Part shown: piece after piece, positions 1 to 58,787 of the stretch
Layout: each line of letters starts with the position of its first letter
Numbering within the stretch: the first letter of the stretch is position 1
Assembly: GCA_026745465.1 (NCBI GenBank)
Contig: JACYXH010000479.1
Span: 5,115,011 to 5,179,010 of the forward strand
Source: Lota lota
Lineage: Eukaryota; Chordata; Actinopteri; Gadiformes; Lotidae
DNA: 64,000 bases
Direction: 5' to 3'
Made by a program: the position numbers and the translations under genes
The notes under the pieces: generated by a model
Told to the model about the DNA's origin: nothing
Database searches by the model: none
The model's input: only the letters and a program-made list of their open reading frames with translations

Positions 1-326
1 GACGTCGTGCTTTTCACCTCCAGCCAGGAGCTGAGGATCTCCGAGTTGGACTCCACACCGGTCTGCTTCTGGGGGATGACAAAAACCTCATCTGGGAGGA
101 GGTAAAGACCGTCTTCAGTGGTCTGACACTGGGAGTAACTGAGGTCCATGACCCGACCCATGTCCATGTTCCTCAGGTTGTCCCAGCCTCCGCCGGGCAG
201 CACCTCCAGGGCCGTGATAGAGAGGTTGGCCCGGCACTGGCTCAACCCGTTGGTCGGCCGACCAACAGGGTGAAGGTAGCAGGAGTGGAGGAGAGAGAGA
301 ATGAGCGGCGCTGCTCTCCATGCCAT
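1..326 (-). CDS. mpeg1: mpeg1 copy 1, exon 1 (partial, runs off the window)
   Basis: This is the 5' coding part of a macrophage-expressed gene 1 (perforin-2) copy, a membrane-anchored MACPF pore former of phagocytes. The start codon is the complement of 324-326, and the frame stays open to base 1. It encodes a hydrophobic signal peptide ([16 protein letters not shown]) followed by the N-terminal MACPF region ([20 protein letters not shown]). It aligns base for base with copy 2 exon 1 at an offset of 5799, with only a few substitutions. The rest of the exon, the intron and exon 2 lie outside the window, so whether this copy is functional cannot be judged. The family call is certain from the alignment to copy 2. 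Confidence 0.9.
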
Positions 327-3300
327 GGTTGGATCAGATATGAATCTGGAGGTGCTTTCGTTTCGAGTATTTGTGGACCTTGGCCAGTTCCTCATTCTAT
401 TTGAGTTGACAATAAATCACGTGATGTAGATGAAGCCATTGGGGTAATCACTTCCTTAATGTCTTACTAACCGAACTCAAGCTGACCTATCTATGGACCG
501 CCATATCAAACATAAAATATGCATCCAGTATTCATGTGTATTTGCCCCACTTGATAAAATTCCTTCGTCCTAGGGTCCAATGTGGTTTCTTCAGAAATTC
601 CGAAAGAATTTGCTCTTACATGATTCAAGAGCATTTGTTACCATGTCGCATCTACAACCAATTATCTCCAGAACTGTAAAACAACAACATAGACAGTAAG
701 AAAATCATAAATAACGCTGACAAAGAAGTACAGTGTGCATTTAATGTTCACGGTTCATTTACAGATTTGATCAAGTGTGTTGATATGGAGAATAAGCTAC
801 AGCAGTGTTATAATGTTCCGCTAACTGTCAATTTCTTTTCACTTCTTAGCAGAAGTAAGTTCTAGATCCTGAAAAACAGTGTGTGGGAGCGTGTGTGGAT
901 GATGGCTGGTTTAAGCAGCCTCACCTGGCCGAGTCTGATTGGACTCTGGGGCTGGGTGAGACCTGTTGCACATTGAGTAATCAGTGTGTACAGGTTAAAC
1001 TAGCGATCTCCACGCACACTCTGGGAGAGTTCTCATAGATGGCAACATGAAACACCAGGCCATGTATCATTATCAACAAACCTTTACGATAAACCGGTCT
1101 ATCAACATCCCCACCCTGCGTCTTTTTGTCTGGAGGAGCCCGAGAAAAGTCACCTAGGTGGAGTGTGGCAGCCACCTCGGTGGCGTGTAGCATGGACATT
1201 GCTATACAGTGGTTGCCAACCTTTTTTGGCCAGTAACTCCATTTAAAATACTTTAAAGAGCCAGTTAACCCACTGTTTCAGCTGGAATTCAAAAAAAGAT
1301 GCGAGGTAAAAATAGTCAAACACTGCAATTGCACTTTTTCAGAAACAAAGGCTTGGATGGAAAATTTTCTTGGGAGATGAGGTGTGGATATATTTTTTCC
1401 ACATACAGCAAAATTGGAGTCGCTCGAAAAATGGTTAGGGTATGAAACACATTTGAAATAGGCCTAACTATCAAGCACACGCAAAGCTGATTATTTATAG
1501 GCCTATACAGGTCTAGGCCCAGATATGGCTGCATGCTACTACATGTTCATTAAGATGTGTTATTATGGGCATTATCAATTTTCCATATTGAAACAATCTC
1601 CCAATATTTCCACATCTGCATGGAGCCAAGGTGCGCTTCTTTAGCCTATTCCATATGCTCGCTATTATGTTTTAACATTTATGTGGGAGGCCTACCAATG
1701 TTCCACTGTATCTCATTTTGAATTTGTTTTGAATTAAATTGACCTTTGTTAATTTTATAACACCCTTCTGCCTTTGAATGCTTATTTTTCTATGTAGAGG
1801 CCTACTATAATGAAATATGTCACTTCATGGTTGGGTGCACAGCCATAATGCTATACATCTAGCTGAAGACATGAGAAATCGAATTAAGAAATTGAACAAC
1901 ATGCCTCTTATATCATGTCTTCAGTAGCGGGAACAGGGCAGTTGCACATTAGCCACCAGGTAGCAAGATAGGTACAATTTCAGGGGAATTCTGTACTACA
2001 TTCATAAGAGATGGTGCCAAACATCCAATTGGATTAGTGAAAATCCTCATAGTAGTAAAGACACATTCCGTTCTGAACAATAAACCGGTTTAGCCAAAAG
2101 TGTTGATGTTCCAATTTGGTTGAGCTATGTCTTCCTCCTACTGTTATGTGAATTAAAATTGTATCTGTTGTATGGTAGAAGAAAAAAAGTAGCAATAGAA
2201 CAAACACACACACACACACACACAGTGCTCTGAATTTACCTTGACAAATGTGATCCTTTTCTCAGTGAGTAAAAGTACATAGTAGCCTACCGTAATAATC
2301 GAAGCGTTATAGTACTTTTTCAGTATATTTCAGTATTCAGGATGCTTTACACCTCATTCAACATGTGCTTAAATGTACTACCAAAAACAAATGTAAACAC
2401 TTCAAATAAGTCTGTGGTTAAACTAAATGTACTGAATCAATTCCAGTTTTTGGCTGGGGTTGTATAGTATTTTTTGCTTAGGAAGGTTCCTATCTGACTA
2501 AGAGGATCCAGAAGTATTTAAGTGGCAGCCATGATAAGAGCTGTTCGAATTCTCTTCATGCTAAGGAAAGGTGCTTCAATGCTTCCTTTCTTTTCTCCTT
2601 TAACATAGGTAACACTGTACCATCCTTTACCAAAGTAAAGGAGATAATAACATCCCACAATTCCTTGCGGTAGGAACCTTTAAAAGGACACACCATTCGT
2701 CCATTTACAAAAACAAACGATCAACATGTCCGACAATTATTTTCATACAATCATACTTATTGGGATATAACTCCATACATACAAGTGGACAGGAGTATGA
2801 GCGTGAGAAACCATTTTCAATTTGACAAGTATTATAGAATTGCAATTTTATCTTTATATCTTTCAAATAAATGAAAGAGAGAGGGTAAATTACACCATAT
2901 TTTATTTAGTAAGGACTATACAGAGTTGATTGGAAGAAACAGGCAAACATGGTAGATACAGGCAGCATAATATTCAATGGTTAATATTTAACCACGGAAT
3001 TTTCAAAAACAACAAAGTTATGAGAAAAGTCATTTGATTGACAGTATAAATGATTGCCCCTCAAACCAATTATCAACAGCTTTCACCTATAATTCTAAGC
3101 TTTTCATTACATCTTTTTTTTTTCTTCATATTTTCATCTTCTCCCATCTTCAATCTATTGCATGTAACACCCAGTAGATGATACTGCTATTTAGTTAAAA
3201 ATCAAACAGGAAACTGGAATGATTCTAAACCTCTATTCATCAAGTTCCGGTCAGTTGGTCGATATGCACTTATATACACTAAGACCAAATCCTCATTGGT

Positions 3301-3865
3301 CGGACAATCGCTGGTGTTACTTTCATATGGTAAAAATCCGCTTTATAATCCATTATTTTTCGGGGCGGGGGGGACATGCAGACCGATGTGTTTTATTTTT
3401 GAGTGATAGGCTATATTGTGTTAGAAATAAAATTAATTAAGAATAAAAATAATTTGGAAGGCTCCGTAGTTTCAGTTTTAATAATCATATGTGTGATTAA
3501 ATTTAAGACTTATAAGACAGGAGGTAAAAACCCACAGTTTTTCACAACTTTGAACATCTTAAGGAAGACTGCTCTTCGTAATTTACTGAACATTTACTCT
3601 GCTCCAAACTAGTGATATCAAATAATCGTAGGTTTGGCAGCATTTGGTTAAAAAGGACGAGAAAAATGTATGTAAAGTGTAAAATAAATGAAAGTATGTA
3701 AGCATTTCATCTAAAATCGGAAGGCATAAGTCCGTTTTTTCATGTCTGTGATTCTCCGTAAACCTTCGTGTTTAACGCTCGATAGGCTTTGAGTGTGAAC
3801 TTCCTCCAAAGAAGCACTTGCATGATATTTAGGCTAGCAGGTAGAGTAGAATGCCCTGTGGCCGA
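327..3865. repeat. mpeg1 tandem-duplication spacer, copy A
   Basis: This spacer lies between mpeg1 copies 1 and 2. From about 1530 to 3865 it is nearly identical to about 7208-9558, with an offset of roughly 5680-5693 and scattered substitutions and short indels. The part next to the copy 1 start (327-880) is the probable 5' flank and promoter of that copy. An LTR occupies 882-1206. A short CA run lies at about 2204-2223. No open frame with recognisable protein similarity was found, and the short frames here are not conserved as proteins. Confidence 0.85.
882..1206 (+). mobile_element. Solo LTR, family A, upstream of mpeg1 copy 1
   Basis: This 325-bp element begins TGTGGGAG and ends ATTGCTATA. 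It is flanked by 5-bp direct repeats CAGTG (877-881 and 1207-1211). The same element, inverted, sits at 58418-58746 with its own target-site duplication TTCAG and a canonical TG...CA pair, so the terminal TA here looks like a C-to-T change. The equivalent locus elsewhere in the window (about 11990-12010 and 19155-19170) lacks it, showing an empty site. TG..CA ends, 5-bp duplications and an AATAAA signal in other copies indicate a solo LTR. Its parent retrotransposon was not identified. It lies about 560-880 bp upstream of the mpeg1 copy 1 start, in opposite orientation to that gene. Confidence 0.75.
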
Positions 3866-6125
3866 TTAAATTAATCTTAATCTAGAGCTAGAGGCCCTTT
3901 TTCTTACCAGGAAAATCACTCCTGCAGCCAGCAACCCCAGCAAACCAATGATCCCAAAGGCCAATCCTGCCTTGGATCCTGCCGTCATCTCATTAGAGTC
4001 TAGTTGAAGCTTCTGTACAACATCCATAACATTCTCTGACCTGACCGGTGTCCACGTCTTGTTTTGTCCTACTCTCACCCAGCTCTGCCCCCCCTCACTC
4101 ATCACCACCACCATCCTACTCATAACCATTGTGCCAATCAACGGAGGCAGAGTGAAGGGGGGAAGGTAGATTGGCAGCAGTTGCCCACCTGTGAACAGTC
4201 CCGACTGGACGCAGTAGAGGATGTCACAGCCGTCGCTGACTGTGGCGAGGTGTTGGCTGAACTCTGCAGGGCAGCGCCTCTGGTTCCCTGCCAGCGGGTT
4301 GGCTGACTCGCAGCTGATGAGGCCCCCAAACGGTACAGAGTATTCAGTAGCCATCTCGTAGTCGTTACTCACACAGATCATCAGACCGTCAGACAGAAAC
4401 TTTAGTGGAATGAAGTATAGAGGGCAGCTCTTGGTTTTGGTTATGGGATTCAGAAGGGAGGGTCCGTAGATCCCTCCAAACAGGAACCCAGCATTTTCTG
4501 GGGCCTCTCCATCAACAGAGCACCAGTAGGTATCGATCCTCGCTTTGCGCACGTGGTAGACATTGCCACACACCTCCCTGTCACATTTGAAAAACAAATG
4601 GCAACGGTCAGCTTCTTCATGACACTCGTAGTGATAGTAACCCTCTTGCCTCACTTCTGAACGCAGTGGAGTGGGGATGTATGGCGAACGGCAGGAGAAG
4701 TCCCCTGTGTCTGGGTTCTTCTGGGCTAGGGCCTGACACAGTGGCTCTGCATCTGAGGTGAGCTGACTACACTGCTGGTAGACACCACCAAAGCTGAGGT
4801 TTGTGGCCGGACCCTGGCACGACTTGTCATCCACGTTAGCCTGGAAGTTGAAGTTCTTGGAGTTGACGTCGACACAGCCCTGGCGTGTGTTGACTGCGTA
4901 GTAACGGTTTATGGCGCGACTCACTGATAGAGCCACCCTGCCGACCGTGGGCTGTGGCATATCAGGGAAGGTTTTGGTGTTGATAAAGTAGTGTAGTGGA
5001 AGCCCCGTGCGGTCAACGGCGACCAAGTTGTTTGTGGTGCTCTCCTGCCACTTCTGCAGGGTCATGCCAGGGTAAAAGGGTATACCTCCGTGACTCTGGG
5101 TGAGAGAGTACGAAATGTTGGACTGATACTCCTGGAGCGCTGAGTTCTGTGTGGTGTCTTTGCTGTTTATGTCGAACTTAAGTTTGTCGTAAAAGTTCAA
5201 CCCAGCCAGGGCTGAGACGGAGGTGATTTGCGACTGACTGTCAGCCACATATGAGGATCGAAGGTAGTCCTCCTGGACTAAAGAAGCCCCAGCATCAACA
5301 CCAGTGATAACATGGGTTCCATAATCAAGCACCATCTTCTCAGAAAGATATGCTGCACGCTTGGTCTGGTTGTTCTCAATGGCGTCTGCTATCTGTTCTG
5401 CCTGCCGAGCAAAGCTGGAGTCCACGGTGAAATCGGGATGGGCCTTGGCAGTGTAGACCAAGTTGCGGACCTATGAGAAACAGAGTTCCATACAAACAGA
5501 TTGTGTGATCAGCTTTAATTAGGTGTCTTTCCCTCTCCTGAAACCCGAAGGGCTTCTGGTTTCAGGAGAGGGACGCCCAAAGTGACTCAATGAGGTCCAT
5601 CAATAAATTTAGGAAGTCCAGAAAACACTTGATATTTATTTTTATTTTTATTGATTATCTGAATCTTGACACAAAACTAACCTGTACTCTCACTGCAGTG
5701 GATGAGTCTTTAACCTGGTGGGTTTTCAATCTCTGGTTCTCCACAGAAAACTTTGCATTCAGCGCAGAAAGAAAGGATATGTCCGTGTTGATAGTATGAG
5801 ACGTCGTGCTTTTCACCTCCAGCCAGGAGCTGAGGATCTCCGAGTTGGACTCCACACCGGTCTGCTTCTGGGGGATGACAAAAACCTCATCTGGGATGAG
5901 GTAAAGGCCGTCCTCAGTGGTCTGACACTGGGAGTAACTGAGGTCCATGACCCGACCCATGTCCATGTTCCTCAGGTTGTCCCAGCCTCCGCCGGGCAGC
6001 ACCTCCAGGGCCGTGATAGAGAGGTTGGCCCGGCACTGGCTCAACCCGTTGGTCGGCCGACCAACAGGGTGAAGGTAGCAGGAGTGGAGGAGAGAGAGAA
6101 TGAGCGGCGCTGCCCTCCATGCCAT
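3866..6125 (-). CDS. mpeg1: mpeg1 copy 2, perforin-2, complete
   Basis: Two coding exons: 6125-5682 (148 codons, start ATG at 6125-6123) and 5470-3866 (534 codons plus stop). They are joined by a 211-bp phase-0 GT-AG intron, and the product has 682 residues. Visible parts are a signal peptide (residues 1-15 or so); a MACPF domain with the signature YGTH near residues 198-201 followed by a run of Gly, Ala and acidic residues; a cysteine-rich middle region; and a P2-like part. A transmembrane helix follows at about 649-670 ([21 protein letters not shown]), then a short basic tail. MPEG1 family proteins are about 700 residues, so the length fits. The known role is to oligomerise in phagosomes and permeabilise engulfed microbes. 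This is the only copy in the window that reads through without lesions. An in-frame ATG further upstream (6179) exists, but the chosen start places the hydrophobic signal at the N terminus. Confidence 0.92.
5531..5572. repeat. Perfect 15-bp inverted repeat in the mpeg1 copy 2 intron
   Basis: CCCTCTCCTGAAACC (5531-5545) is matched by its exact complement at 5558-5572. The 12-base loop can pair four further bases (GAAG/CTTC), giving a strong hairpin. Sequence shared with copy 3 ends at about 5529 (equivalent to 10614), right beside this hairpin. No protein is encoded here. Confidence 0.85.
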
Positions 6126-9100
6126 GGTTGGATCAGAAATGAAACTAGAGATGTTTTTGTGGGGCATGGCCAATTTCATTCTGTTTGAGTTGAGAATAAA
6201 TCACATGATGTAGACAAAGGCATTAGGGTAAGCGCTTCTTTAATGCCTTAGTAACCGAACTCAAGCTGACTTATCTGTGGACTGCCAAATTCAGAAAAAT
6301 ATGTTCCAAGATTCAAGAGCGTTTGTTACCATGTCACATCTACAATCAAATATCTCCAGAACTGTAAAACAACAACAACCACTAATAAGGCTAATAAAGA
6401 AGTACAGTGGGCATTTAATGTCAAACAAATGTAAAACAAATCTTTACAAATAAACCGGTCTATCAACATCCCCACCCTGCGTCCTTTTGTCTGGAGGAGC
6501 CCAATAGAAGTCACCTGGGTGGAGTATGGCAGCCACCTAGGTGGGGTGTAGCATGGACATTGCTACAAAGTGGTTGCCAACCTTTTTTGGCTCGTGACTC
6601 CATTTTAAAAACGTAGTTAACCCTCTGTTTCAGCTGGAATTCGAACACTATCAGAATTTTTAAAGAAACTGTTTTTTGGGATGAGACAACAAAAAAATTT
6701 GAGGTAATAATATTCCAACACTATCAGATAAAAAAAAAAGATTTGGGATGAGAACAAAAAACATTTATCATATTATGTGCGGAAAATGCTTTTCAGAGCG
6801 AGAGAATCACTTTTTGAACACAATGTGTTTCTGAGCATGAAACGTGGTGTCTAGTGTTAAAAATGATGACGCTTCACCAGTTGATGATGCTATAAGGTCT
6901 TTACAACCATTCACAGGCTTAGTAACACGTTTCCATTTAAAGTGTGAAAAAGCAACATTTCTCACGGTGTGCGGAAAATGCTTTTCAGAGCGAGAGAATC
7001 ACTTTTTGACCACAATGTGTTTCTGAGCATAAACAAATACTTGGATTGAAAATTGTCTTGGGAGATGAGGTGTGGTTACATTTTTTCCACAAACAGCAAA
7101 ATTGGAGTCACTCGAAAAACGGTCACGGTATGAAACACGTTTAAAATATGCTTAACTATCAAGCACACGTGATAATTTATAGGCCTATACAGGTCTATGC
7201 CCAGATATGGCTGCATGCTACTACATGTTCCTTAAGATGTGTTATTATAGGCATTATACATTTTCCATATTGAAACAATCTCCCAATATTTCCACATCTG
7301 CATGGAGCAAAGGTGCGCTTCTTTAGCATATTCCATATGCTCGCTATTATGTTTTAACATTTATGTGGGAGGCCTACCAATGTTCCACTGTATCTCATTT
7401 TGAATTTGTTTTGAATTAAATTGACCTTTGTTAATTTTATAACACCCTTCTGCCTTTGAATACTTATTTTTCTATGTAGAGGCCTACTATAATGAAATAT
7501 GTCACTTCATGGTTGGGTGCACAGCCATAATGCTATACATCTAGCTGAAGACATGAGAAATCGAATTAAGAAATTGAACAACATGCCTCTTATATCATGT
7601 CTTCAGTAGCGGGAACAGGGCAGTTGCACATTAGCCACCAGGTAGCAAGATAGGTACAATTTCAGGGGAATTCTGTACTACATTCATAAGAGATGGTGCC
7701 AAACATCCAATTGGATTAGTGAAAATCCTCATAGTAGTAAAGACACATTCCGTTCTGAACTATAAACCGGTTTAGCCAAAAGTGTTGATGTTCCAATTTG
7801 GTTGAGCTATGTCTTCCTCCTACTGTTATGTGAATTAAAATTGTATCTGTTGTATGGTAGAAGAAAAAAAGTAGCAATAGAAAAAACACACACACACACA
7901 CACACACACAGTGCTCTGAATTTACCTTGACAAATGTGATCCTTTTCTCAGTGAGTAAAAGTACATAGTAGCCTACCGTAATAAACGAAGCGTTATAGTA
8001 CTTTTTCAGTATATTTCAGTATTCAGGATGCTTTACACCTCATTCAACATGTGCTTAAATGTACTACCAAAAACAAATGTAAACACTTCAAATAAGTCTG
8101 TGGTTAAACTAAATGTACTGAATCAATTCCAGTTTTTGGCTGGGGTTGTATAGTATTTTTTGCTTAGGAAGGTTCCTATCTGACTAAGAGGATCCAGAAG
8201 TATTTAAGTGGCAGCCATGATAAGAGCTGTTCGAATTGTCTTCATGCTAAGGAAAGGTGCTTCAATGCTTCCTTTCTTTTCTCCTTTAACATAGGTAACA
8301 CTGGACCATCCTTTACCAAAGTAAAGGAGATAATAACATCCCACAATTCCTTGCGGTAGGAACCTTTAAAAGGACACACCATTCGTCCATTTACAAAAAC
8401 AAACGATCAACATGACCGACAATTATTTTCATACAATCATACTTATTGGGATATATGTCCATACATACAAGTGGACAGGAGTGTGAGCGTGAGCAACCAT
8501 TTTCAGTTTGACAAGTATTATAGAATTGCAATTTTATCTTTACATCTTTAAAATAAATGAAAGAGAGAGGGTAAATTACACCATATTTTATTTAGTAAGG
8601 ACTATACAGAGTTGATTGGAAGAAACAGGCAAACATGGTAGATACAGGCAGCATAATATTCAATGGTTAATATTTAACTACGGAATTTTCAAAAACAACA
8701 AAGTTATGAGAAAAGTCATTTGATTGACAGTATAAATGATTGGCCCTTAAACCAATTACCAACAGCTTTCACCTATAATTCTAAGCTTTTCATTACATCT
8801 TTTTTTTTTTTTCATATTTTCATCTTCTCCCATCTTCAATCTATTGCATGTAACACCCAGTAGATGATACTGCTATTTAGTTAAAAATCAAACAGGAAAC
8901 TGGAATGATTCTAAACCTCTATTCATCAAGTTCCGGTCAGTTGGTCGATATGCACTTATATACACTAAGACCAAATTCTCATTGGTCGGACAATCGCTGG
9001 TGTTACTTTCATATGGTAAAAATCCGCTTTATAATCCATTTTTTTTCGGGGTGGGGGGGGACATGCAGACCGATGTGTTTTATTTTTGAGTGATAGGCTA

Positions 9101-9558
9101 TATTGTGTTAGAAATAAAATTAATTAAGAATAAAAATAATTTTGAAGGCTCCGTAGTTTCAGTTTTAATAATCATATGTTTGATTAAATATAAGACTTAT
9201 AAGACAGGGGGTAAAAACCCACCGGTTTTCACAACTTTGAACTCGCCCATCTTAAGGAAGACTGCTCTTCGTAATTTACTGAACATTTACTCTGCTCCAA
9301 ACTAGTGATATCAAATAATCGTCGGTTTGGCAGCATTTGGTTAAAAAGGACGAGAAAAATGTATGTAAAGTGTAAAATAAATGAAAGTATGTAGGCATAT
9401 CATCTAAAATCGAAAGGCATAAGTCAGTTTTTTCATGTCTGTGATTCTCCGTAAACCTTCGTGTTTAACGCTCGATAGGCTTTGAGTGTGAACTTCCTCC
9501 AAAGAAGCACTTGCATGATATTTAGGCTAGCAGGTAGAGTAGAATGCCCTGTGGCCGA
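6126..9558. repeat. mpeg1 tandem-duplication spacer, copy B
   Basis: This is the second copy of the intergenic spacer, between mpeg1 copies 2 and 3. It is nearly identical to copy A from about 7208 to 9558. The part next to the gene (6126-7200) is rearranged relative to copy A. It has lost roughly 330 bp, including the front half of the LTR, and gained a local repeat: the run from GTGCGGAAAATGC through TTTCTGAGCAT occurs at about 6777-6838 and again at 6969-7029. A longer CA run than in copy A lies at about 7886-7911. No coding sequence is recognised. Confidence 0.85.
6435..6567 (+). mobile_element. Truncated solo LTR, family A, upstream of mpeg1 copy 2
   Basis: This is the 3' part of the LTR seen at 882-1206. 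It keeps a canonical AATAAA (6449-6454) and the end ATTGCTACA. The 5' half is missing, together with flanking sequence. It starts about 310 bp upstream of the mpeg1 copy 2 start codon, within likely promoter range, and its polyadenylation signal points away from the gene. Its presence in the same place in copies 1 and 2 means the insertion came before the tandem duplication. Confidence 0.75.
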
Positions 9559-10561
9559 TTAAATTAATCTTAATCTAGAGCTAGAGGCCCTTTTTCTTAC
9601 CAGGAAAATCACTCCTGCAGCCAGCAACCCCAGCAAACCAGTGATCCCAAAGGCAAAACTGGCCATGGATCTTGCAGTCATCTCACCAGAGTCTAGTTGA
9701 AGCTTCCGTACAACATCCGTAACGTTCTCTGACCTGACCGGTGTCCACGTCTTGTTCTGTCCCACTCTCACCCAGCTCTGCCCCCCCTCACTCATCACTA
9801 CCACCATCCTACTCATAACCATTGTGCCAATCAACGGAGGCAGAGTGAAGGGGGGAAGGTGGATTGGCAGCAGTTGCCCACCTGTGAACAGTCCCGACTG
9901 GACGCAGTAGAGGATGTCACAGCCGTCGCTGACTGTGGCGAGGTGTTGGCTGAACTCTGCAGGGCAGCGCCTCTGGTTCCCTGCCAGCGGGTTGGCTGAC
10001 TCGCAGCTGATGAGGCCCCCGAACGGTACAGAGTATTCAGTAGCCATCTCGTAGTCGTTACTCACACAGATCATCAGACCGTCAGACAGAAACTTTAGTG
10101 GAATGAAGTATAGAGGGCAGCTCTTGGTTTTGGTTATGGGATTCAGAAGGGAGGGTCCGTAGATCCCTCCAAACAGGTTCCCAGAATTTTCTGGGGCCTC
10201 TCGAAATGTTGGACTGATACGTCTGGAGCGCTGAGTTCTGTGTGGTGTCTTTGCTGTTTATGTCAAACTTGAGTTAATCGAAAAAGTTCAACCCAGCGAG
10301 TACTGAGACAGAGGTGGTTTGCGACTGACTGTTAGCCACATATGAGGATCGAAGGTAGTCCTCCTGGACTAAAGAAGCCCCAGCATCAACATCAGTGATA
10401 ACATGGGTTCCATAATCAAGCACCATCTTCTCAGAAAGATATGCTGCACGCTTGGTCTGGTTGTTCTCAATGGCGTCTGCTATCTGTTCTGCCTGCCGAG
10501 CAAAGCTGGAGTCCACGGTGAAATCGGGATGGGCCTTGGCAGTGTAGACCAAGTTGCGGAC
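9559..10561 (-). pseudogene. mpeg1: mpeg1 copy 3, exon 2 pseudogene
   Basis: This copy aligns to exon 2 of copy 2 at both ends. At about 10203 the sequence jumps, losing the counterpart of roughly 4508-5111 (about 604 bp, not a multiple of three). The loss covers the later part of the MACPF domain and the following cysteine-rich region. A stop codon (complement of 10274-10276) also closes the 5' part just before the deletion. The splice acceptor and the YGTH region are kept, and the C-terminal frame with its transmembrane helix remains open. No exon 1 is adjacent: sequence shared with copy 2 ends in the intron at about 10614. It is a broken copy that cannot make the pore-forming protein. Confidence 0.92.
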
Positions 10562-11234
10562 CTATGAGAAACAGAGTTCCATACAAACAGATTGTGTGAT
10601 CAGGTTTAATTAGGTGTCACACAATGTCCCATTACTAGCAGCGTAATTTAGATTCATTGTTATTTGAATAATTAAAGGTACACTACCTAATTATTTTAAC
10701 ATTTTCAAACAATTCAAATGATTTAACTGCTATTAAGCTGCTATCGTTGATCCTCAACAACTCCCATCCCTTTTGCCGTAACTGGTTACTGCAGCCTTTG
10801 GCCCACAAATGAGCTACCTTTTCGAATCCTTTAGCACAAATACAACATCTCTGACGTTGTACCAAGTGTTGAGTGATGACAGTGATAGATTGAAAGCGAT
10901 ATTTAAAATCTAGACAAAATAAAATATTTATAAATATTGTGTTATGTACCGTTGAAAAAAATGGGAATTCTCTACCATTACATGTGTTGCCAAGTTATTC
11001 AAATAATAGAATGTGTAATTAGAGACTTAAACCAATCAAACCACAATCTCATGTCACAATATGTGACTGTTTTAGCACCATTGATGTATGCTGTTTTGAG
11101 ATGAAGATACAGACATTTGTTATTTATATTGAGTGTACATGTAAAGTATAAGTGAGGCCCAAGACACTAGGGCTGTGTCTTTGGGATGTATTCACTTACA
11201 AACAGTGGGACGGTACTACCATACTAAACCCACG

Positions 11235-11274
11235 CACTCATGCATAGAAAGCTACAGCTATCTATGCATGAGTG
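11235..11274. repeat. 14-bp perfect inverted repeat
   Basis: CACTCATGCATAGA (11235-11248) is repeated as its exact complement at 11261-11274, with a 12-base loop. It is a local hairpin in non-coding DNA with no identified function. Confidence 0.8.
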
Positions 11275-12002
11275 TGTATAGATATACCAGATGACACAGA
11301 TAGTGTCTTTATGTACTTTCCTATGTATTTATTTAGATTAATCAAACGATTGTAAAGGTTTTCTGTGTCACGGTCCTTCCCAACATTGTGTACTTCTGTT
11401 TTTTCCTGTTCCTTGATTGATAGATAGCCTACATACATTTGGCAACCTCAACTAAATGTATCTATTATAATTATGTATTATTATTATTATGAATATTATT
11501 ATATAGAAAACTAATCATTTATATTATTATAATATAGAAAACTGATCATTAAAATGTGCTGTAACTAACTACAAAATCCTAAGGAAAATCATTTCTGGTA
11601 TTCAATAACCAGTTGTGGCATGGGTCTCCATTGAGCGAAGAAATGATACGGAAGGGTTATGTTTGGGTGAAATGCTTGGTGTTCAGCTAAGCAACGCGAG
11701 CACAACCACATGCCCAGGCATGCCCACAAAGACGACAAACATTCAGATAAGACAGATTAACGGTATTTGGATACCAAATAGCTCCAAAACTGTAAAACAA
11801 CAACAAACACAGTAACAAAAGTCATAAATAAGGCTAATAAAGAAGATTTACAGTGTGCATTTAATTTCCCAGATTAATTTACAGATTTGAACAGTGTGTT
11901 GATAATGGAGAAGAAGCTATAGCAGTGTGATAATGTTCTGCTTAGTATTTCATTCAAAGGAAATTCACTTCTTAGCAAAAGTTAGCACTACACCATGAAA
12001 AA

Positions 12003-12155
12003 CAGTGGTTGCCAACCTTTTTGATATGTGACTCCATTTTAAAACCTTTAAAATGATGTATGTTTACTAACGTTTATCAAATATCTCTATCTAATGTCAG
12101 CAATCTCTTGCGACCCCATATGCCTATCAAGCGACACCAAGTTGGGGAACCACTG
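12003..12155. mobile_element. hAT-like miniature element
   Basis: The ends CAGTGGTTGCCAAC and (complement) CAGTGGTTCCCCAAC form a terminal inverted repeat of about 14 bp with one indel. The roughly 153-bp body is non-coding. CAGTG starts of this kind are common in hAT elements. The left half recurs at about 1207, 6568 and 19164. No clear 8-bp target duplication was seen, so the family call is tentative. Confidence 0.5.
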
Positions 12156-12937
12156 CTGTAGAACCTGTTGAAAACCTATTTCAATCCTCCATGAAATCCT
12201 TGAATTCAACAATATATTTATGAAGCTCTTAATTAATTAATAATGGCCCCCGTATTTAAGGCTCCATTGCTTGTGTGTTCATCAAATTAAGAAACAAATC
12301 CAAAAGAGAGGCAGTTTTCTTTCCCTGAAATCACCTGATTCCACAGCAAATTAAAACAAACATGGTCATGGTTCCTGTAAGTGGAGGGGAATACCGTGTT
12401 CTGACCATGCGATGAAAACCACTTCTCTTTTGGAAAAAATGTTTATCAAGCAAGTTCAAAACTCGCCCCAGGCAAGGCATTGAGCGCCGCAGACAGCGGC
12501 TTCAGTCTGGTCAGTTTGAAAAGGAAGTAAAGGCGTCAGTAATGTTCCGGATTTAAAGTAGTGAACTGAAACTGGCACGCCACAAACATTGTAGCCAGGG
12601 GAACATGTTTCAAGTGTGCGATGATGTGAGGATGAAGCAATATGTGTGAGTTTGAGGGTGGGTGGGTGGGTGGGGTGGGGGTGGGGGGTTTACAATCCTC
12701 AACACCAGGGCTGGACTGGCCGTCTGACAGACCAGGGACTCTCCCCGGGCCGACGTGCCTTTTGGGCCGACGACACACCGGTCTATTTTCATAATTGTAT
12801 ATATTTTGGTCTGACCGGCCCATGAAACAGGTAGATCCCCCCATTGTTTTTTTGTTTTTTTCTTAATTGACACTGGCTGGCCCAATCACATCTCGGAGCC
12901 TAAAAACACCCAAATCACTCAATGACCTGTGACACTT

Positions 12938-13455
12938 TAGCCTGGCATCGCCAGACAAATTGCCAACTGCAATCAGTCTGGAACCTCTCCATTCTTTTTC
13001 GATTTCCAAAGGGCATCACCAACGGGCGCAGACAAAAATGCCTCTGGACGCATTTGGATGGGCCTACAACCAAGCATAGCAACGAAACGGTTGACACAGC
13101 CCTGAGTGACGAAAATAAATGTTTCTTCTCAACAAAAGCTCTAAGTGCAGTCGTTCGTTCTTCTTTTAGTGAAAACATACAGTTCAGTTCGTTTAATACT
13201 GTCTCCATAGCGTAATCAACAGACAGTTCTACATCAGCGGCAGCCATCTTTGTTTTTGTTGAAAACGCCTCTAGGGCGCTCCTCTGCACCTTCATCGTAT
13301 TTATCCTGCCTCATATTAGATAAACGGTTGTGATTGGTCGGTCTATCTCATACCAGGCAGAAATCATTTTGTATGGGAGGGGAGCCAAACTTTATTTGCA
13401 ACGCAAATCAAACATTTGCTCTGCAAATTGCGAGATTCGTCTGGTTCCCAGGCTA
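12938..13455 (-). mobile_element. Non-autonomous inverted-repeat element, copy A, with helicase-like frame
   Basis: The ends are TAGCCTGG and its complement, with a longer imperfect match (TAGCCTGGCATCGCCAGAC against TAGCCTGGGAACCAGAC). Flanks are GTGACACTT (12929-12937) and GTGGCACTT (13456-13464), a likely 8-9 bp target duplication, which suggests the hAT superfamily. Inside, on the minus strand, a frame from 13295 starts with MAAADVELSVDYAMETVLNE after a short leader. It continues with FSLKEERTTALRAFVEKK, which resembles the segment just before the Walker motif in RecQ-type helicases. No helicase motif I follows, so at most a gene fragment is carried. A second copy is at 19538-20041. Confidence 0.65.
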
Positions 13456-13539
13456 GTGGCACTTCTCTTTATATGAAAATCTTTGATATGGGTTTTAAAT
13501 GAGGAGGTCTTGGGTGCAACTCAGACAAAATTGGAACAA

Positions 13540-13860
13540 CTCCAATGTGCTTCTAGAGCAGATGTTGAGGATGCCACCGGCACCCTACTTACTATGGTCC
13601 TGGATCACCTGGATGCTGCAAATAATTATTTACGATTGCTTTTTATTGTCATCTCCTCAGTTTGCAACTGTATCCAACTTCACATTTTAGCAGATGGATT
13701 TACCAGCATCAACAAATTTGACCTGGGATTAATGTATTGGCTAGTGCCTTTTTAACTGACCGGTCTCAAAAGTGCGGAGTGTGTGTTGGGAGAAAAGCTG
13801 AATTCGTCTCAGCTTTTTAATAACGTTACAGCGCAACAAGGCCTCCTAGTGCCTCAGTTA
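13540..13860 (+). pseudogene. L2/Rex-like LINE reverse transcriptase fragment, copy A
   Basis: The frame 13483-13755 contains LTMVLDHLDAANNYLRLLFI followed by a degenerate SSxxNxIQxHILAD segment and LDLGLxYWL-like residues. The next frame starts with LTDRSQK and ends in a degraded QQG-like stretch. This order matches the central reverse-transcriptase region of L2/CR1-group LINEs (usual consensus: VRLLFxDFSSAFNTIQPHxL, then FLTDRSQxV, then SPQG). The catalytic FADD is absent and the frame is broken, so it is a dead fragment. It is duplicated at 20045-20310. Confidence 0.7.
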
Positions 13861-16204
13861 AGCGACGTATCCTCATACAACGGTGCGTATGATATATCGT
13901 ACAAAACGTTATGCAACATTTTTCGTAAGATTCCTATGAATCTCCAGCAACACAAGCGATTAGTGCACCTGCACACAAAAAAAAGGTGGACATGGCTTTT
14001 ATTCTCAGTGGAAAATGCTATATTTTGATAGATTCGGCATTAAAATGGGTTTTGATAACATTTCTACCGAGAAATATGCATTTAATTGTCATAATCTTCA
14101 TTCAGTGATTGTAAACGTTTAGTTTGTAAGTTATTATGAATATTATTTTGGGTCTCGCTAGAAAATTGTTAGAATGAAAACCAAACATGGCTCATTTTAC
14201 GCTTGTTTCAGCATTAAAATGCGTTTTGATAACATTTCTCGCAAGAGATTTTCCTTTTATTGTTATAATCTTCATTCAGTGATTTTATATGATGTTTAGT
14301 TAGTTAGTTAAACTGCTCGTGGCGTTTTTCATGGTCATTTGGGGTTTTGAGGGAATATTATTGGGGTAGGTTATATTCTGTTTAAGAAATAACCAAAATT
14401 ATATATTACACACAACACGTATTTCAAACATGTGGAACCATGAGCTACATTTTTGTTCGGAATCCCCACGCCCCCCAGTTCTTGTAAATATCCATATGCG
14501 CTTGTTAACGACCTATGGCCATTATTTCATTTTCTGTAACGTGCAGGCATATATCCTGTATTTAATACATGAATGTTGTAACATCCTTAGAACTTCCTGT
14601 TGGAATGTTCTGTTAAACCGGATGTATAAAGAAAGATACAGAATAATGATGGCAGCGCCGTTATGGCTAATTGATGAGTAGTCTAGTCGTATCTTTTATA
14701 CAAAGATAACATTAAACATTACAAATGTGAACATGTAATATGAACACAATATTCTAAACAACCCCCGAAATGATTGATTCTGGGTTCCTGTGATAGGAGC
14801 GGGACGATGTGATGAGGTACATGTATACAATGGAAGCACAGTTCATGTTGCTTACGAGTTTATGAGTTCTATATAAAGGTTCATTTATACAAACCTAGAT
14901 GAGGATTTATCACCAATAGTGCACTTTACTCATTTACTAATCTAAAGATAAATGATTTAGCCGGCTTTTACTCCAAACCAAAGCGCACTGGTTGCCATAA
15001 CGACGTTACGTGTGGCAGCAGAGCTGCAGTCAATGGTTTTGTTTTTGGCATAAACTAGGTTCCGCTGGCTAGGAAATATATACATATTCTAAGGTGCATT
15101 TGGAAGGCAAACCGCGGTTAACAGTTAAAAATTTTTTCAAATCACTGTCTGAGGGCTAGTTACGTCACTCCGAAAGATGTGTTTGCATGGACAAATTTAG
15201 TAGTGACACAACATATACTCATATATTAGAACAAAATATACTAGAATGATCGATTAAGAGGCCGTAGCCCTACAGGAAATAATGCAATGAGGTGAATTAG
15301 GGATCAAGGACACTAACAAGTGAGCTATAGACCTGGGGTCTCTTTTATATCAAAGAGGGTCTCAAAGGACATATATGATTCTCAATTTGGGGGCTCCGGC
15401 CCTACAAGAAGTGACTCACAAAGTCTCAGCAAATGCCCCATCTTGTGGCGCCTCACCCAGCGGCTCGCTTGCAAGATTGTGAGCTGGAGTTCTTCCCAGA
15501 CCTACATCCTACCCATCCAACATGCATATCTGAGAAGCAGACCTCTATTTCATAACAAAAAAAGGTTATGAGCAAAATGCACATGAATGGCTCTATTTGA
15601 TCTTTTGACCCCAGACTTGAAAAATGTGTCCGCAGGCTAGCTGTGTTTACACGCCTTAAGGCACAAATTTCCATCTCCATCCCACCGAAAATGGGGAACT
15701 AGAAACGCCCGCTGTTTTATGCCCATTTAACAGTTGGAGGTCACGGTCCTTTTCCCACCCTTTGGAGATGGCTAGAGATGCTAAAATCCATACACTCGTT
15801 CCCCTGGGTCCTGGGAACAACATATATTTTTCTAGTGCTTATATAAAAAAGGTTTACCCAAACGTGTGGTTTTTTGACAAAGCCTCTCAGAAGTGTGGCC
15901 CGCAAGACCTAGTTTATCAGAATGTGGTGTAAAAGGCAGTTTTGGAGATAGAAAGGTCCTAACTCCCTGAGATTTGACAACCTTATTCTAGGGCCTGGAC
16001 ACCGAACCTTGGCCCTCTCGGGCCCCGAGGGCAGGGGGTGGGTCCGTGGTTTAAGGATAGGGTTAGGGTCCGCCTTTTCGCTAAGCAACCCAAGATTTTC
16101 ACAGAGCAATCCCAAGATACCCCCTGGTTGAAAGGTCTAATGGCCAAGTTCCTATCTCTTGTCTACGAATTTAGATTTGTTTATAGCAACTGCTTGTGTT
16201 TCCA

Positions 16205-16560
16205 TATAATTTTAGCAGACCTTAATGCCCTTATTCATATAAAAGAGACTAGCCGTCTCTCGTATTCACAAGTCATTCTAGGCTCACATTAATGGTGTGT
16301 TTTTTACATCTTCGTATGACTTCTCATGGAGGGATTACATCACTTCCGGTTGGGCTGAACCCACCAAATTGATAATCTTGTATGTCCTTTAGGCGCTCTT
16401 TCATATAAAAAGAGGCTCAGAAGCTCATTCCCAAGTGTACCAGACCCCTAGATCACCCACCAATTCCGTCACTTCCGGTTGGCCTAGAGTCTCCAAACAT
16501 TTCATTTTAGTAGAGTTTAATGCCCTCATTCATATAAAAGTGTTCAATAGGAGTGCAACG
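16205..16560 (+). repeat. Degenerate tandem repeat with TTCATATAAAA core
   Basis: The block TTTTAGCAGACCTTAATGCC followed by CTTATTCATATAAAAGAG (16209-16246) recurs as TTTTAGTAGAGTTTAATGCC plus CTCATTCATATAAAAG at 16504-16539. A third variant with CTCTTTCATATAAAAAGAG lies at 16395-16414. The phrase CACTTCCGGTTGG appears twice (16341, 16470). Spacing is about 120-160 bp. The structure is satellite-like and decayed. Confidence 0.55.
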
Positions 16561-17448
16561 GGCCCCCCCTATAATTTGTGACCATAACGGGGGGCCTTGC
16601 TGTCACCCATGGGCCTCAATAACTTGACCTTGGACATACACACACACTCGGGGAACATACACACATGTTCCCCGGTTCTGCACTCCTTGGGGCAGGCACA
16701 CTGATCACTCGTGTTGCCGGACATTCGTGGGAATCTTATGAAAGATTGTGCAGGCATTTTTGTAAGATATCATGTGAACGTTGTATGAGACCAGCCTGAG
16801 CTAAATAACACTTCTCTTATTTTTTTAATTATCATGTTCTCAAACTTGTATGGTAGTCAAAAGCAATCACATCCTAATGTGTATTGATATGTTTAGAGGG
16901 AGTTAAAAGGAAGGAATGTTTATAAATTCTGAAATTTAATTCATGGTGGTTTAAGTAACCCAATGGTGATTAAGGGCCTAAGTAATCCGAATTACTTAAT
17001 GACTAAAGTAATCTTTATGACTTTCAGATAGGACAGAAGGAAACAGACGGGTGAATATCAATAATGATTAGGGAAGCACCGATTCCACTTTTTCTCAGAC
17101 CAAGTACAAGTACTTACATTTGAGTACTCGCCGATACCGAGTACCGATATGAATACTTAATAATACCATTACAGTTTAAAGAGCCAGTGAACCCACTGTT
17201 TCAGCAGGAATTCAAACACTATGAGATTTTAAAAAAAGTGTTTTGGGCTGAGAGTTCTAGGAAAGGGGGGGGGGTGTTATCGCCATGGTTACGGCCCACG
17301 GCAACTTTGTGATACTTTTTTAGTACCATCGTTGTGTATGAGCGTTACAATGAGCGATGTTGTACATGAAATGAGCCACACACCGTAGCAATATACTATA
17401 GGTGTCCGGGAATCCTAACCCTCGGATATTAAATAAATCGCTGTATAA

Positions 17449-17494
17449 ATTATATATATATATATACATACGTATATATATATATATATATATA
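17449..17494. repeat. TA microsatellite
   Basis: An imperfect run of TA dinucleotides interrupted by ACATACG. It is a simple repeat with no gene nearby. Confidence 0.9.
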
Positions 17495-17585
17495 TCCGCA
17501 ATAAATTAATTTAATAAACTCAGAAATATGAAAAGCATGTCAAGCAGTTTGTCTGTGCCCTTTCCTTAGTGTTGTCCTAGTCACC

Positions 17586-17705
17586 ATGGTTTTCTGTGCT
17601 GCACCGGGATGCTCAAATCGCTCTGAGAAAAGGAGTACAAATGTATGGTTTCCCCACTGACACAAAAGGAGAAAGAATGGTTTGCTCAAGTCAGCAGAAG
17701 CAATC
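17586..17705 (+). pseudogene. THAP-domain fragment
   Basis: From ATG at 17586 the frame reads MVFCAAPGCSNRSEKRSTN. Then, in shifted frames, a FPTDTK segment and an RRK...W-like segment follow. This matches the start of a THAP zinc finger (C-x4-C after MVxxC, then FHxFPxD and a WL segment) found in P-element-derived and THAP proteins. At least one frameshift and a stop break it, and no further exons are visible. It is a decayed fragment, either of a THAP gene or of a P-like transposon. Confidence 0.6.
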
Positions 17706-18282
17706 TTACTATAATCAAACATTACAACAGCCCAAAAATATGTGAGGTAATCATATTCAAACACTTCAATCGCATTTTTTCAGAAACAAAGACCGCACCA
17801 TTGGGAAGCTTAAAGAGCCAGTAAACCCACTGTTTCAGATGGTGTAACTGTTATGAGCGTTATAATAAGCGATGTAGTATATGAAATGCGCCACACACCG
17901 TAGCGTTATAATATAGGTGTCCGGGAAGCCTAACCCTCGTACGCGGGTATTAAATGAATCACTGCTCAGACCAAAAAAAACTGGCTCTGGCTCTTTGATG
18001 GTTTTTTTTGTGTTTTTTTAAGTAATCGGGAAATGCTTGCAAACCCCTGGGAGTTGAGACTCATTGGGTGCGATGGTGCTGTCTCATTGAAGGGAGTCTT
18101 CAAGCTTCCATTGAAGGATTGATAGTTCCGGGAAACATTGAGAGGATCTACGATCCGCCATTGCTGTAAACAAAAAATGGTCCATCGGAGATAAAGGAGA
18201 TGACGCGACTCTCCCTCTAAATGACTCTGGGTACTACCAAACCCGGAAGTTGGTAGACTACAAGACAGCGGTGCCATCCTAG

Positions 18283-18448
18283 TGTCCATGTTCCTCAGGT
18301 TGTCCCAGCCTCCGCCGGGCAGCACCTCCAGGGCCGTGATAGAGAGGTTGGCCCGGCACTGGCTCAACCCGTTGGTCGGCCGACCAAGGGGGTGAAGGTA
18401 GCAGGAGTGGAGGAGAGAGAGAATAAGCGGCGCTGCCCTCCATGCCAT
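18283..18448 (-). pseudogene. mpeg1: Orphan 5' half of mpeg1 exon 1 (copy 4)
   Basis: From the ATG at 18448-18446 the sequence encodes the mpeg1 signal peptide and the N-terminal segment through DNLRNMD. It is nearly identical to copies 1 and 2 but ends abruptly at 18283. Unrelated sequence follows in frame, so the open frame runs on to 17966 as a 160-residue chimera (signal peptide, about 56 mpeg1 residues in all, then a novel tail). About 100 bp of 5' flank (18449-18560) also resembles the other copies. It may be the displaced first exon of copy 3 or a remnant of another copy. No downstream mpeg1 exon in correct order is nearby. Confidence 0.85.
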
Positions 18449-19537
18449 GGTTGGATCAGAACTTATTCTGGAGGTGTTTTACTGAGTATTTGTGGGGCAT
18501 GGCCAGTTTCTCTTTCTGTTTCAGTTCTCAATACATCACATTAAGGCATTAAGGCATTAGGCTCCTTAATGCCTTCCCTCCCGAACACAAGCTGATTTAT
18601 CAGTGGACCGTCATCATATGTAAAATGTCCATCTTCTATTCATGTGTATTTGCTCCACTTGATAGAATTCCTTAGTCCCTATGGTCCCCTGTGTTTTTTT
18701 CAGGAATTCAAAACGATATGTTTCAAGATTTAAGAGCATTTGTTACCACATGTTGCATCTACAACCAAATGAGGGGCCAGACAATGGCCGTCTGAGCGAA
18801 AAGAGAATGCGGGAAGGTTATGTTTGGGTGAAATGCTTGGTGTTCAGCTAAGCAACGCGAGCACACCCACATGCCCAGGCATGCCCACAAAGACAAACAT
18901 TCAGATAAGACAGATTAACGGTATTTGGATACCAAATAGCTCCAGCACTGTAAAACAACAACAAAGACAGTAACAAAAAACATAAATAGGGCTGACAAAG
19001 AACATTTACAGTGTGCATTTAATTTCCCAGGTTAATTTACAGATTTGATCAGTGTGTTGATAATGGAGAAGAAGCTACAGTAGTGTGATAATGTTCCGCT
19101 TAATATTTAACTAAAAAATGTTTCACTTCTTAGCAGAAGTTAGCACTACATCCTGAAAAGCAGTGGTGTCCAACCTTTTTGGCCCATAACTCCATTTTAA
19201 AACCTTTAAAATGATGTATGTTTACTAACGTTTATCAAATATCTCTATCTAATGTTAGCAATCTCCTGCGACCCCACATCGGGGGTGGGGGGGTTTACAA
19301 TCCTCAACACCAGGGCTGGACTGGCCATCTGACAGACCAGTTACTCTCCCTGGGCCGAAGTGCCTTTTGGGCCGACGACACACCGGTCTATTTTCTTAAC
19401 TGTAAATATTTTGGTCTGACCAGCCCATGAAACAGGTAGATCTCCCCATTGTTTTTTTTTTCTTAATTGACACTGGCTGGCCCAATCACATCTCGGAGCC
19501 TTAAAACATCCAAATCACTCAATGACCTGTGACACTT
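18449..19537. repeat. mpeg1-like 5' flank and segmental duplication, copy B
   Basis: The first 300 bp resemble the 5' flanks of mpeg1 copies 1 and 2. From about 18790 on, the sequence matches 11640 onward, including the block with GGTTATGTTTGGGTGAAATG and the truncated hAT-like end at 19164. This shows that the region beside copy 3 and the region beside the orphan exon derive from one duplicated ancestor. There is no coding sequence. Confidence 0.7.
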
Positions 19538-20041
19538 TAGCCTGGCATCGCCAGACAATGAAATGCAATTACTCTGGAACCTCTCCGTTCTTTTTCGATT
19601 TCCAAAGGGCATCACCAACGGGCGCAGACCAAAATGCCTCTGGACGCATTTGGATGGGCCTACAACCAAGCATAGCAACGAAACGGTTGACACAGCCCTG
19701 AGCGACGAATTTTTTTTTTCTTCTCAACAAAAGCTCTAAGTGCAGTCGTTTGTTCTTCTTTTAGGGAAAATATACAGTTCAGTTTGTTTAATACTGTCTC
19801 CATAGCGTAATCAACAGACAGTTCTACATCAGCGGCAGCCATCTTTGTTTTTGTTGAAAATGCCTCTAGGGCGCTCCTCTGCACCTTCAACGTATTTATC
19901 CTGCCTCATATTAGATAAACGGTTGTGATTGGTCGGTCTATCTCATTTTCTCAGAACTCTTTTTGTATGGGACGGGAGCCAGACCTTATCTGCAGAGCAA
20001 ATGAAATATGAGCTTGCGAGATTTGTCTGGTACCCAGGCTA
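19538..20041 (-). mobile_element. Non-autonomous inverted-repeat element, copy B
   Basis: This 504-bp element begins TAGCCTGGCATCGCCAGAC and ends CCAGGCTA. It is flanked by a perfect GTGACACTT on both sides (19529-19537 and 20042-20050). It carries the same minus-strand frame as copy A (from 19890, FSLKEEQTTALRAFVEKK). Identical flanks outside both copies show it was copied by segmental duplication rather than by two insertions. No transposase is present. Confidence 0.7.
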
Positions 20042-20044
20042 GTG

Positions 20045-20310
20045 ACACTTACTATGGTCCTGGATCACCTGGATGCTGCAAATAATTATGTACGATTGCA
20101 TTTGATTGTTCTCTCCTCAGTTTGCAACTGTATCCAACTTAACATCTAAGCAGATGGACTTACCATCTAATTAATATATTGGCATGTGCCTTTTTAACTG
20201 ACCGGTCTCAAAAGCCCTGAGTGTGTGTTGGGAGAAAAGCTGAATTTGCTTCAGCTTTATAATAACGTGACACAGCACAACAAGGCCCCCTAGTGCCTCA
20301 GCTAAGTAAC
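20045..20310 (+). pseudogene. L2/Rex-like LINE reverse transcriptase fragment, copy B
   Basis: This is the duplicate of 13580-13860. It encodes TMVLDHLDAANNYVRLHLIV and, after breaks, LTDRSQKP. It lacks about 130 bp present in copy A between two ACTT motifs. It is frame-broken with no catalytic motif. Confidence 0.65.
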
Positions 20311-58746: not shown

Positions 58747-58787
58747 TTCAGCATTTGCCTGAACTGATCAACAAAAAAACTACGAGA

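What the first reader, a model, noticed from the sequence alone, without database searches (positions are those of the whole stretch)
1..18448. mpeg1 birth-and-death cluster: four traces, one intact gene
Copy 1 (edge), copy 2 (intact), copy 3 (604-bp deletion plus stop) and an orphan exon-1 half all lie on the minus strand. Copies 1-3 share long near-identical spacers, so the array is young, while one member has already decayed. More copies may lie to the left of the window. This is a natural record of copy-number change in a pore-forming immune gene.
Basis: partly seen in the sequence, partly recalled or inferred. Interest (0 to 1): 0.7.

Follow-up and report, generated by a model that had tools for sequence, protein, structure and literature searches.

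The report
Fish perforin-2 genes with swapped hairpins
A fish chromosome carries a row of near-identical copies of the bacteria-killing pore gene mpeg1, three whole and three broken, and the whole copies differ most sharply in the small loop that is known in mammals to grip membranes.

Summary
The tandem mpeg1 (perforin-2) traces are real, but 'one intact gene' comes from the window edge. The window lies in a 14.7-Mb contig. Searches of the assembly found no other mpeg1 exon. prf1 flanks the array.

A+B and C+D are copies of a 12.2-kb two-gene block, 98.0% identical over aligned columns. One breakpoint lies in the end of a Tc1-like transposon, the other in an inverted repeat in the mpeg1 intron. 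B therefore probably lost exon 1 at birth. E and F belong to an older layer.

The unexpected result: A and C differ at 22 of 111 nt in one stretch but at 13 of 1455 in the rest of the shared exon 2. That stretch contains the P2 beta-hairpin, the membrane-binding element of mouse perforin-2. D has a third hairpin. Synonymous sites are raised too, so I favour import of a diverged hairpin by gene conversion. No donor was found in the assembly.

The parts
1..326 (-). The gene continues left of the window: exon 1 to contig 5114893, exon 2 contig 5114070-5112400; 148+556 codons, intact. Beyond it on the same strand: B exon 2 (contig 5108793-5107189) and gene A (exon 1 contig 5103111-5102668, exon 2 contig 5101930-5100260), intact.
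   Evidence: tblastn and translation on the contig; genome searches
327..881 (-). Upstream flank of gene C, parts of it shared with the flanks of D, E and F
   Evidence: self-comparison
577..3865 (-). Spacer between D and C including D's 3' flank; 65 differences in 3173 aligned columns against the B-A spacer (indels left out; one 99-bp indel lies near 2853)
   Evidence: block alignment; self-comparison
3866..5470 (-).
4538..4648 (-). Hairpin patch of gene D (exon 2 codons 275-311), containing the P2 beta-hairpin; 20 of 111 nt differ from A and 26 of 111 from C
5471..5681 (-). Gene D intron, phase 0, 211 bp. It holds an inverted repeat with arms of about 15 bp; the block breakpoint lies in the matching repeat of B
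5682..6125 (-). Gene D exon 1, 148 codons
7028..9558 (-). 3' flank of copy E, near-identical to the 3' flank of D
9559..10561 (-).
10562..11610 (-). Remnant of E's intron, about 70% identical to the A and C introns in its matched part; exon 1 and the segment just upstream are missing
11632..13862 (-). Upstream flank of E, duplicated at 18793-20306 in three aligned pieces (84-91%)
18283..18448 (-). F, orphan first 166 bp of exon 1, followed by DNA with dispersed partial copies
18793..20306 (-). Upstream flank of F, duplicate of 11632-13862; approximate right limit of the duplicated material

Best explanation
This is a tandem array of the teleost mpeg1 (perforin-2) gene next to perforin (prf1). 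It grew by repeated tandem duplication and is reshaped by gene conversion. An older round left E and F. The latest round duplicated a 12.2-kb block holding two genes. One breakpoint lies 18 bp inside the terminal repeat of a Tc1-like element and the other inside an inverted repeat in the mpeg1 intron, so B was most likely created without exon 1. Three genes (A, C, D) encode full-length membrane-anchored pore proteins. A and C are 99% identical in their outer 3' flank and in exon 2 outside one patch, but inside the patch, which contains the P2 beta-hairpin, they are 20% diverged. I infer that after the duplication one of them received a diverged functional hairpin by gene conversion from a donor not in this assembly (another allele, haplotype or lost copy). 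The likely outcome is one pore-forming body offered with three membrane-gripping hairpins and two cytoplasmic tails. Shown: array, gene models, breakpoint letters, concentration of differences in the hairpin. Inferred: gene conversion, the order of events, any change in membrane specificity.
For: Array and gene models. Fish MPEG1 has one CDS intron and lies beside perforin in the same orientation (PMC3477005, passages); both hold here. Block duplication: 221 differences in 10945 aligned columns; A/C outer 3' flank 29/2993; breakpoint letters. Hairpin patch: A-C 22/111 against 13/1455 elsewhere in the shared exon 2, B-D 1/111. In 2000 shuffles per pair none reached the observed clustering in 5 of 6 pairs; 3 of 2000 did for B-D, whose patch has only one difference. 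The patch contains the stretch aligned to mouse Y427-V452, whose truncation abolished lipid binding (PMC6989145, passages; alignment). Four cysteines are kept in the hairpins of A, B, C and D; random substitution keeps them with no stop in 1.6-4.4% of trials (4 settings).
Against: dN/dS in the patch is not significantly above 1 in any of 6 pairs (0 to 1.87), so positive selection is not shown. No donor hairpin was found in the assembly: 4 matches to C's patch, all in the array. Clustered mutation in one copy would also raise both classes of change. The rest of the A/C pair is not uniformly 99% identical: exon 1 8/444, intron 28/735, 5' flank 13/252 aligned columns differ, so other tracts may have been replaced too. 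One other 111-column window in the block scores higher (31), but it spans a 99-bp indel where the alignment is unreliable. Expression, function and population frequency are untested. The breakpoint reading assumes one simple tandem duplication.
Confidence: 0.7

Rival explanations
1. Ordinary birth-and-death with old divergence: the three hairpins descend from three old genes, and everything around the hairpin has been homogenised by gene conversion while selection kept the hairpins apart.
For: Exon 2 is alike across array members whose introns or flanks are older: E's intron is about 70% identical while its exon 2 is about 96-98%; A and D 3' ends are about 76% identical while exon 2 is 96.5%. 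Synonymous divergence in the patch is high (0.14 to 0.48 in the 5 pairs other than B-D). A and C are less alike in the intron and 5' flank than in the outer flank.
Against: A and C are 97.6% identical over 5.2 kb, including flanks outside the gene, and their outer 3' flank differs at only 29 of 2993 columns. They look like one duplicated segment, so the hairpin should have been the same at birth.
Confidence: 0.2
2. Local hypermutation or error-prone repair in one copy produced the patch without any donor.
For: No donor found in the assembly. Both synonymous and nonsynonymous sites are raised.
Against: In the patch A, C and D all keep the frame, four cysteines and a hydrophobic tip; random substitution keeps cysteines and frame in 1.6-4.4% of trials.
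Confidence: 0.1
3. Assembly artefact: haplotypes of one or two loci laid end to end.
For: Only an assembly was available; no reads. Blocks at 98% identity could in principle be two haplotypes.
Against: 14.7-Mb contig, no N in 124 kb. The block junction joins transposon-end letters to intron letters, as a real duplication would. E and F have their own breaks and older divergence. No further copy of exon 1 or exon 2 was found elsewhere in the assembly.
Confidence: 0.08
4. B is not a relic but an alternative last exon: transcripts starting at C exon 1 skip C exon 2 and splice to B exon 2.
For: B exon 2 is fully open (534 codons) with an intact acceptor in phase 0, downstream of C in the direction of transcription.
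Against: No transcript data. With so few B-specific changes (15 B-only sites in exon 2) an open frame is expected even without selection. B lies about 3.6 kb beyond the end of C.
Confidence: 0.1

Closest known systems
Zebrafish mpeg1, mpeg1.2 and mpeg1.3
   Same: Several mpeg1 paralogs in one fish, one of them thought a pseudogene or silent (PMC7593815 and PMC7937864, passages)
   Different: The passages I read report no hairpin-limited difference and no two-gene block duplication; the zebrafish primary paper (PMC6738794) was not held
Orange-spotted grouper mpeg1 pair
   Same: Two mpeg1 copies in a teleost (PMC7937864, passage)
   Different: Arrangement and hairpins are not described in the passage read
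Cnidarian Mpeg-1/perforin-2 paralogs
   Same: Multiple duplications of the same gene family within species (PMC7424014, passages)
   Different: The passages read contain no mention of the hairpin or of tandem arrangement (both terms 0 occurrences)
Perforin-1 birth-and-death families in vertebrates
   Same: Amplification and pseudogenes in the sister gene (PMC3477005 passages; PMC7574235 search listing and abstract start)
   Different: Here the amplified gene is mpeg1 and the differences concentrate in the P2 hairpin, an element of perforin-2
Mouse and human perforin-2 P2 beta-hairpin
   Same: Same position, four cysteines and hydrophobic tip; residues along the hairpin are said mostly not to be conserved across species (PMC6989145, passages)
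   Different: Here hairpins vary between adjacent genes of one genome, are 4 residues longer, and have net charge -1 to -4 against +4 in mouse and 0 in human (K/R minus D/E)

Membership tests
MPEG1/perforin-2 | MACPF domain | tested here: met
   D exon 2 matches PF01823, 103.6 bits against cut-off 21.5; A, B and C also above cut-off
MPEG1/perforin-2 | P2 domain after the MACPF domain, collinear with solved MPEG1 | tested here: met
   D aligns with human and mouse MPEG1 through the P2 domain
MPEG1/perforin-2 | C-terminal transmembrane segment | tested here: met
   Hydrophobic segment followed by RKR in the A, B, C and D translations, by inspection only; no predictor was run
MPEG1/perforin-2 | Single CDS intron, as in fish MPEG1 (PMC3477005) | tested here: met
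   A, C and D have exon 1 of 148 codons and one phase-0 intron with GT..AG; no transcript evidence
MPEG1/perforin-2 | Neighbouring perforin in the same orientation, as in fish (PMC3477005) | tested here: met
   Minus-strand open frame left of the array matches Perforin-1 chains
MPEG1/perforin-2 | Acid-triggered pore formation | not testable with these tools
   needs protein
Birth-and-death tandem gene array | Several near-identical tandem copies with intact and broken members | tested here: met
   3 intact, 3 truncated
Birth-and-death tandem gene array | Copy number varies among individuals or species | not testable with these tools
   one assembly only
Gene-conversion mosaic | Short tract with divergence unlike its flanks | tested here: met
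   22/111 against 13/1455 for A-C
Gene-conversion mosaic | Donor sequence identified | tested here: not met
   only the four array copies match C's patch
Gene under positive selection | dN/dS above 1 in the variable patch | tested here: not met
   0 to 1.87 in 6 pairs, no pair significant

The most novel reading that the evidence does not exclude
The array is a hairpin-cassette system. Gene conversion from a diverse pool of hairpin alleles swaps the membrane-gripping hairpin of perforin-2 between otherwise homogenised genes, so that one fish deploys several membrane specificities of the same pore. B may serve as a donor or as an alternative last exon.
Probability: 0.3. Interest if true: 0.8.

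Novelty: new variant of a known kind. Interest (0 to 1): 0.55.

Why it matters
How perforin-2 chooses the membrane it attacks is debated (PMC6753088, PMC6989145 and PMC9713709, passages), and the P2 hairpin is central to it. Natural proteins that are about 96% identical (25 of 670 residues differ between A and C, 14 of them in the 37-residue hairpin patch) are a ready-made comparison of hairpin function. If hairpins are exchanged as cassettes, an innate pore protein would be diversified in the manner of a recognition gene. The block junction also records one tandem duplication to within a base or two and shows a gene copy that was probably born truncated.

Tried and rejected
Rejected: 'one intact gene' (window-edge effect). 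Not shown: positive selection by dN/dS in the hairpin. Considered: a hairpin donor elsewhere in the assembly, none found; mpeg1 copies elsewhere, none found. The 12 fetched stretches holding the MACPF hits outside the array, plus the prf1 stretch, show no mpeg1 similarity beyond one weak MACPF-motif match at E 0.40. The genome tool scores only its best candidates, so absence is not absolute. A scan of viral contigs for relatives found none, so no other fish sequence was available for comparison. The source of the 650 bp that replaces the long tail in the short-tail copies stayed open because the genome search did not complete four times. The structure job for D's P2 domain had not finished and was not used. 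In one search my exon coordinates were one base out, so its translations were in a wrong frame; redid it correctly.

Paper searches touching mpeg1 copies, tandem arrays, positive selection or gene conversion: 20 of 90 papers listed; 20 of 3044; 20 of 156; 20 of 2390; 20 of 331; 7 of 7; 8 of 181. None of the rows listed is titled as, or begins its abstract as, a report of hairpin variation or hairpin exchange in mpeg1; unlisted rows were not seen. Papers seen only as passages: PMC3477005, PMC7593815, PMC7937864, PMC6753088, PMC6989145, PMC7424014, PMC9713709. PMC6738794 is not held.
Full report
Coordinates are window coordinates; for places left of the window, contig coordinates on C479 are given (window base 1 = contig 5115011). 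All mpeg1 copies below are on the minus strand.

THE OBSERVATION. Self-comparison of the window shows repeated mpeg1 segments at 1-544, 1340-5527, 5800-6325, 7028-10618 and 18283-18768, plus a separate pair of duplicated flanks at 11632-13862 and 18793-20306. Copy 2 (here D) has exon 1 at 6125-5682, a 211-bp intron and exon 2 at 5470-3866. Its two exons match human and mouse MPEG1 chains, and in the best chain exon 1 stops at residue 134 and exon 2 starts at 135. Copy 3 (here E) has lost 602 bp of exon 2, has a TAA at 10276-10274, and has no exon 1. The orphan (here F) is 166 of 444 bp of exon 1.

BEYOND THE WINDOW. The window is contig C479:5115011-5179010 of a 575-Mb assembly in 867 contigs; the contig is 14.7 Mb long. 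Sixty kb to the left were fetched; the 124 kb examined contain no N. They complete copy 1 (here C: 148+556 codons) and add B (exon 2 only, 534 open codons, contig 5108793-5107189) and A (148+556 codons, exon 1 contig 5103111-5102668, exon 2 contig 5101930-5100260). Genome-wide, exon 1 matches 4 places and exon 2 matches 5 copies in 6 pieces, all in this array. To the left lies prf1 on the same strand: the open frame at contig 5092258-5091242 matches Perforin-1 chains; further exons up to about 5093994 are assigned by recall, with one MACPF hit among them. This agrees with the fish arrangement in PMC3477005 (passages). To the right, from 38.7 kb, lies a protein-kinase gene whose best solved relative for one tested open frame is MAPK6; I take it for mapk4 from recall.

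TWO KINDS OF TAIL. A and C end with a 34-residue tail after FLV; B, D and the 3' part of E end with 12 residues. The two kinds agree up to about codon 528. The short-tail copies then have about 650 bp of unrelated DNA (in D, 3239-3887) before similarity to the A and C 3' flank resumes at about 75-77%.

THE LATEST DUPLICATION. Block 1 (contig 5097240-5109401, holding A and B) and block 2 (from the same junction into the intron of D, holding C and D) align over 10945 columns with 221 differences, 98.0%; six indels of 15 bp or more, the largest 646 and 535 bp, are not counted. By segment the A/C side differs at 29/2993 (outer 3' flank), 40/1671 (exon 2), 28/735 (intron), 8/444 (exon 1) and 13/252 (5' flank), the B/D side at 65/3173 (spacer), 36/1605 (exon 2) and 2/73 (intron). 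The left edge of block 1 lies 18 bp inside the right terminal repeat of a 1.63-kb Tc1-like element at contig 5095626-5097258, whose ends are perfect inverted repeats over the 27 bp checked and whose transposase frame is interrupted (the name Tc1-like is recalled, and no family search was run on this element). At the B/C junction the first 18 bp of that repeat pass straight into B's intron, at the inner end of one arm of an inverted repeat (arms of about 15 bp) that A, C and D still have whole. The simplest reading is one tandem duplication with these two breakpoints. B then lacks exon 1 because the breakpoint lay in the intron.

AN OLDER LAYER. E's intron is about 70% identical to those of A and C (545 columns, which include 21 bp of exon 2), while its exon 2 differs at 21 to 38 of 964 positions from the others. 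F's exon fragment differs from A, C and D at 3 or 4 of 165 positions, while the whole F stretch with its flank is 82.5% identical to C over 504 columns. Exons are thus more alike than the DNA around them, which points to gene conversion, selection or both. F is cut by DNA with 37 further partial matches in the genome.

THE HAIRPIN. Exon 2 differences are not spread evenly. Codons 275-311 (111 nt) hold 22 of the 35 A-C differences, 20 of 55 for A-D, 26 of 56 for C-D, 21 of 53 for A-B, 27 of 53 for B-C and 1 of 36 for B-D, in the shared 1566 nt. In a scan of the whole block alignment this patch scores 22 per 111 columns. One window scores 31, but it spans a 99-bp indel; the next two score 12. 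Shuffling differing codons never reached the observed clustering in 2000 trials for five pairs; for B-D 3 of 2000 did, and its densest stretch is codons 481-510, not the hairpin. The patch includes the stretch aligned to [26 protein letters not shown] of mouse perforin-2. By its length and its ends this is Y427-V452, the hairpin whose removal abolished lipid binding in PMC6989145 (passages). Later structures agree that the hairpin tip holds the membrane in pre-pore and pore (PMC9713709, passages); PMC6753088 (passages) assigns lipid binding to the same hairpin. The four hairpins here keep four cysteines and a hydrophobic tip (LLF in A, LFF in B and D, FFF in C); the arms differ, with net charge -4, -3 and -1.

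WHAT THE HAIRPIN MEANS. Nonsynonymous and synonymous changes are both raised in the patch: synonymous divergence is 0.14 to 0.48 in the five pairs other than B-D (0.05), against 0.02 to 0.04 elsewhere, and no pair has dN/dS significantly above 1. The counts are small and use a simple counting method. The pattern argues for a tract of older sequence, not fast change in place. Since A and C sit in copies of one block that is otherwise about 95-99% identical by segment, the change most likely came after the duplication, by gene conversion from a hairpin outside this assembly; a genome search with C's patch finds only the four array copies, at 84-87% for the other three. Two further clusters are visible: 10 of the 18 D-only changes in exon 2 lie in codons 77-114, near the second membrane-inserting segment of the MACPF domain (placement from recall), and 10 of the 15 B-only changes lie in codons 480-509, before and in the transmembrane segment; E shares those ten with B. 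These were not tested separately.

HOW IT LIKELY WORKS. Each intact gene should give a type-1 membrane protein that forms a ring in phagosomes and opens a pore on acidification, as in mammals (established knowledge of the family; not tested here). The three genes would offer the same pore with different hairpins and two tails. Whether this changes lipid or pH preference is open.

LIMITS. One assembly, no reads, no expression, no other fish sequence for comparison. The structure prediction did not finish.

Noticed in passing
contig C479:5095626-5097258 (L013:616-2248): Tc1-like element of 1.63 kb with matching inverted ends at the left edge of the array; its transposase frame is interrupted.
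   Followed up: partly
window 3239-3887: About 650 bp in the short-tail copies stands where A and C have the end of the long tail; its origin is unknown because the genome search did not complete.
   Followed up: partly
exon 2 of D, codons 77-114 (window 5242-5129): Ten of 18 D-only substitutions cluster here, a second divergent tract in the MACPF domain.
   Followed up: partly
exon 2 of B, codons 480-509 (contig 5107356-5107267): Ten of 15 B-only substitutions (against A, C, D) cluster before and in the transmembrane segment; E shares them.
   Followed up: partly
window 51313-52221: Open frame of 302 codons matching transposase domains HTH_Tnp_Tc3_2 and DDE_3.
   Followed up: no
window 58449-62963: Run of long overlapping open frames; one (60583-61152) has only a weak reverse-transcriptase match, below the Pfam cut-off. 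Parts of 58417-58746 also lie between mpeg1 copies at 882-1207 and 6439-6567.
   Followed up: no
window 12915-13310 and 19717-19946: The duplicated flank holds a 131-codon open frame with no Pfam match.
   Followed up: no
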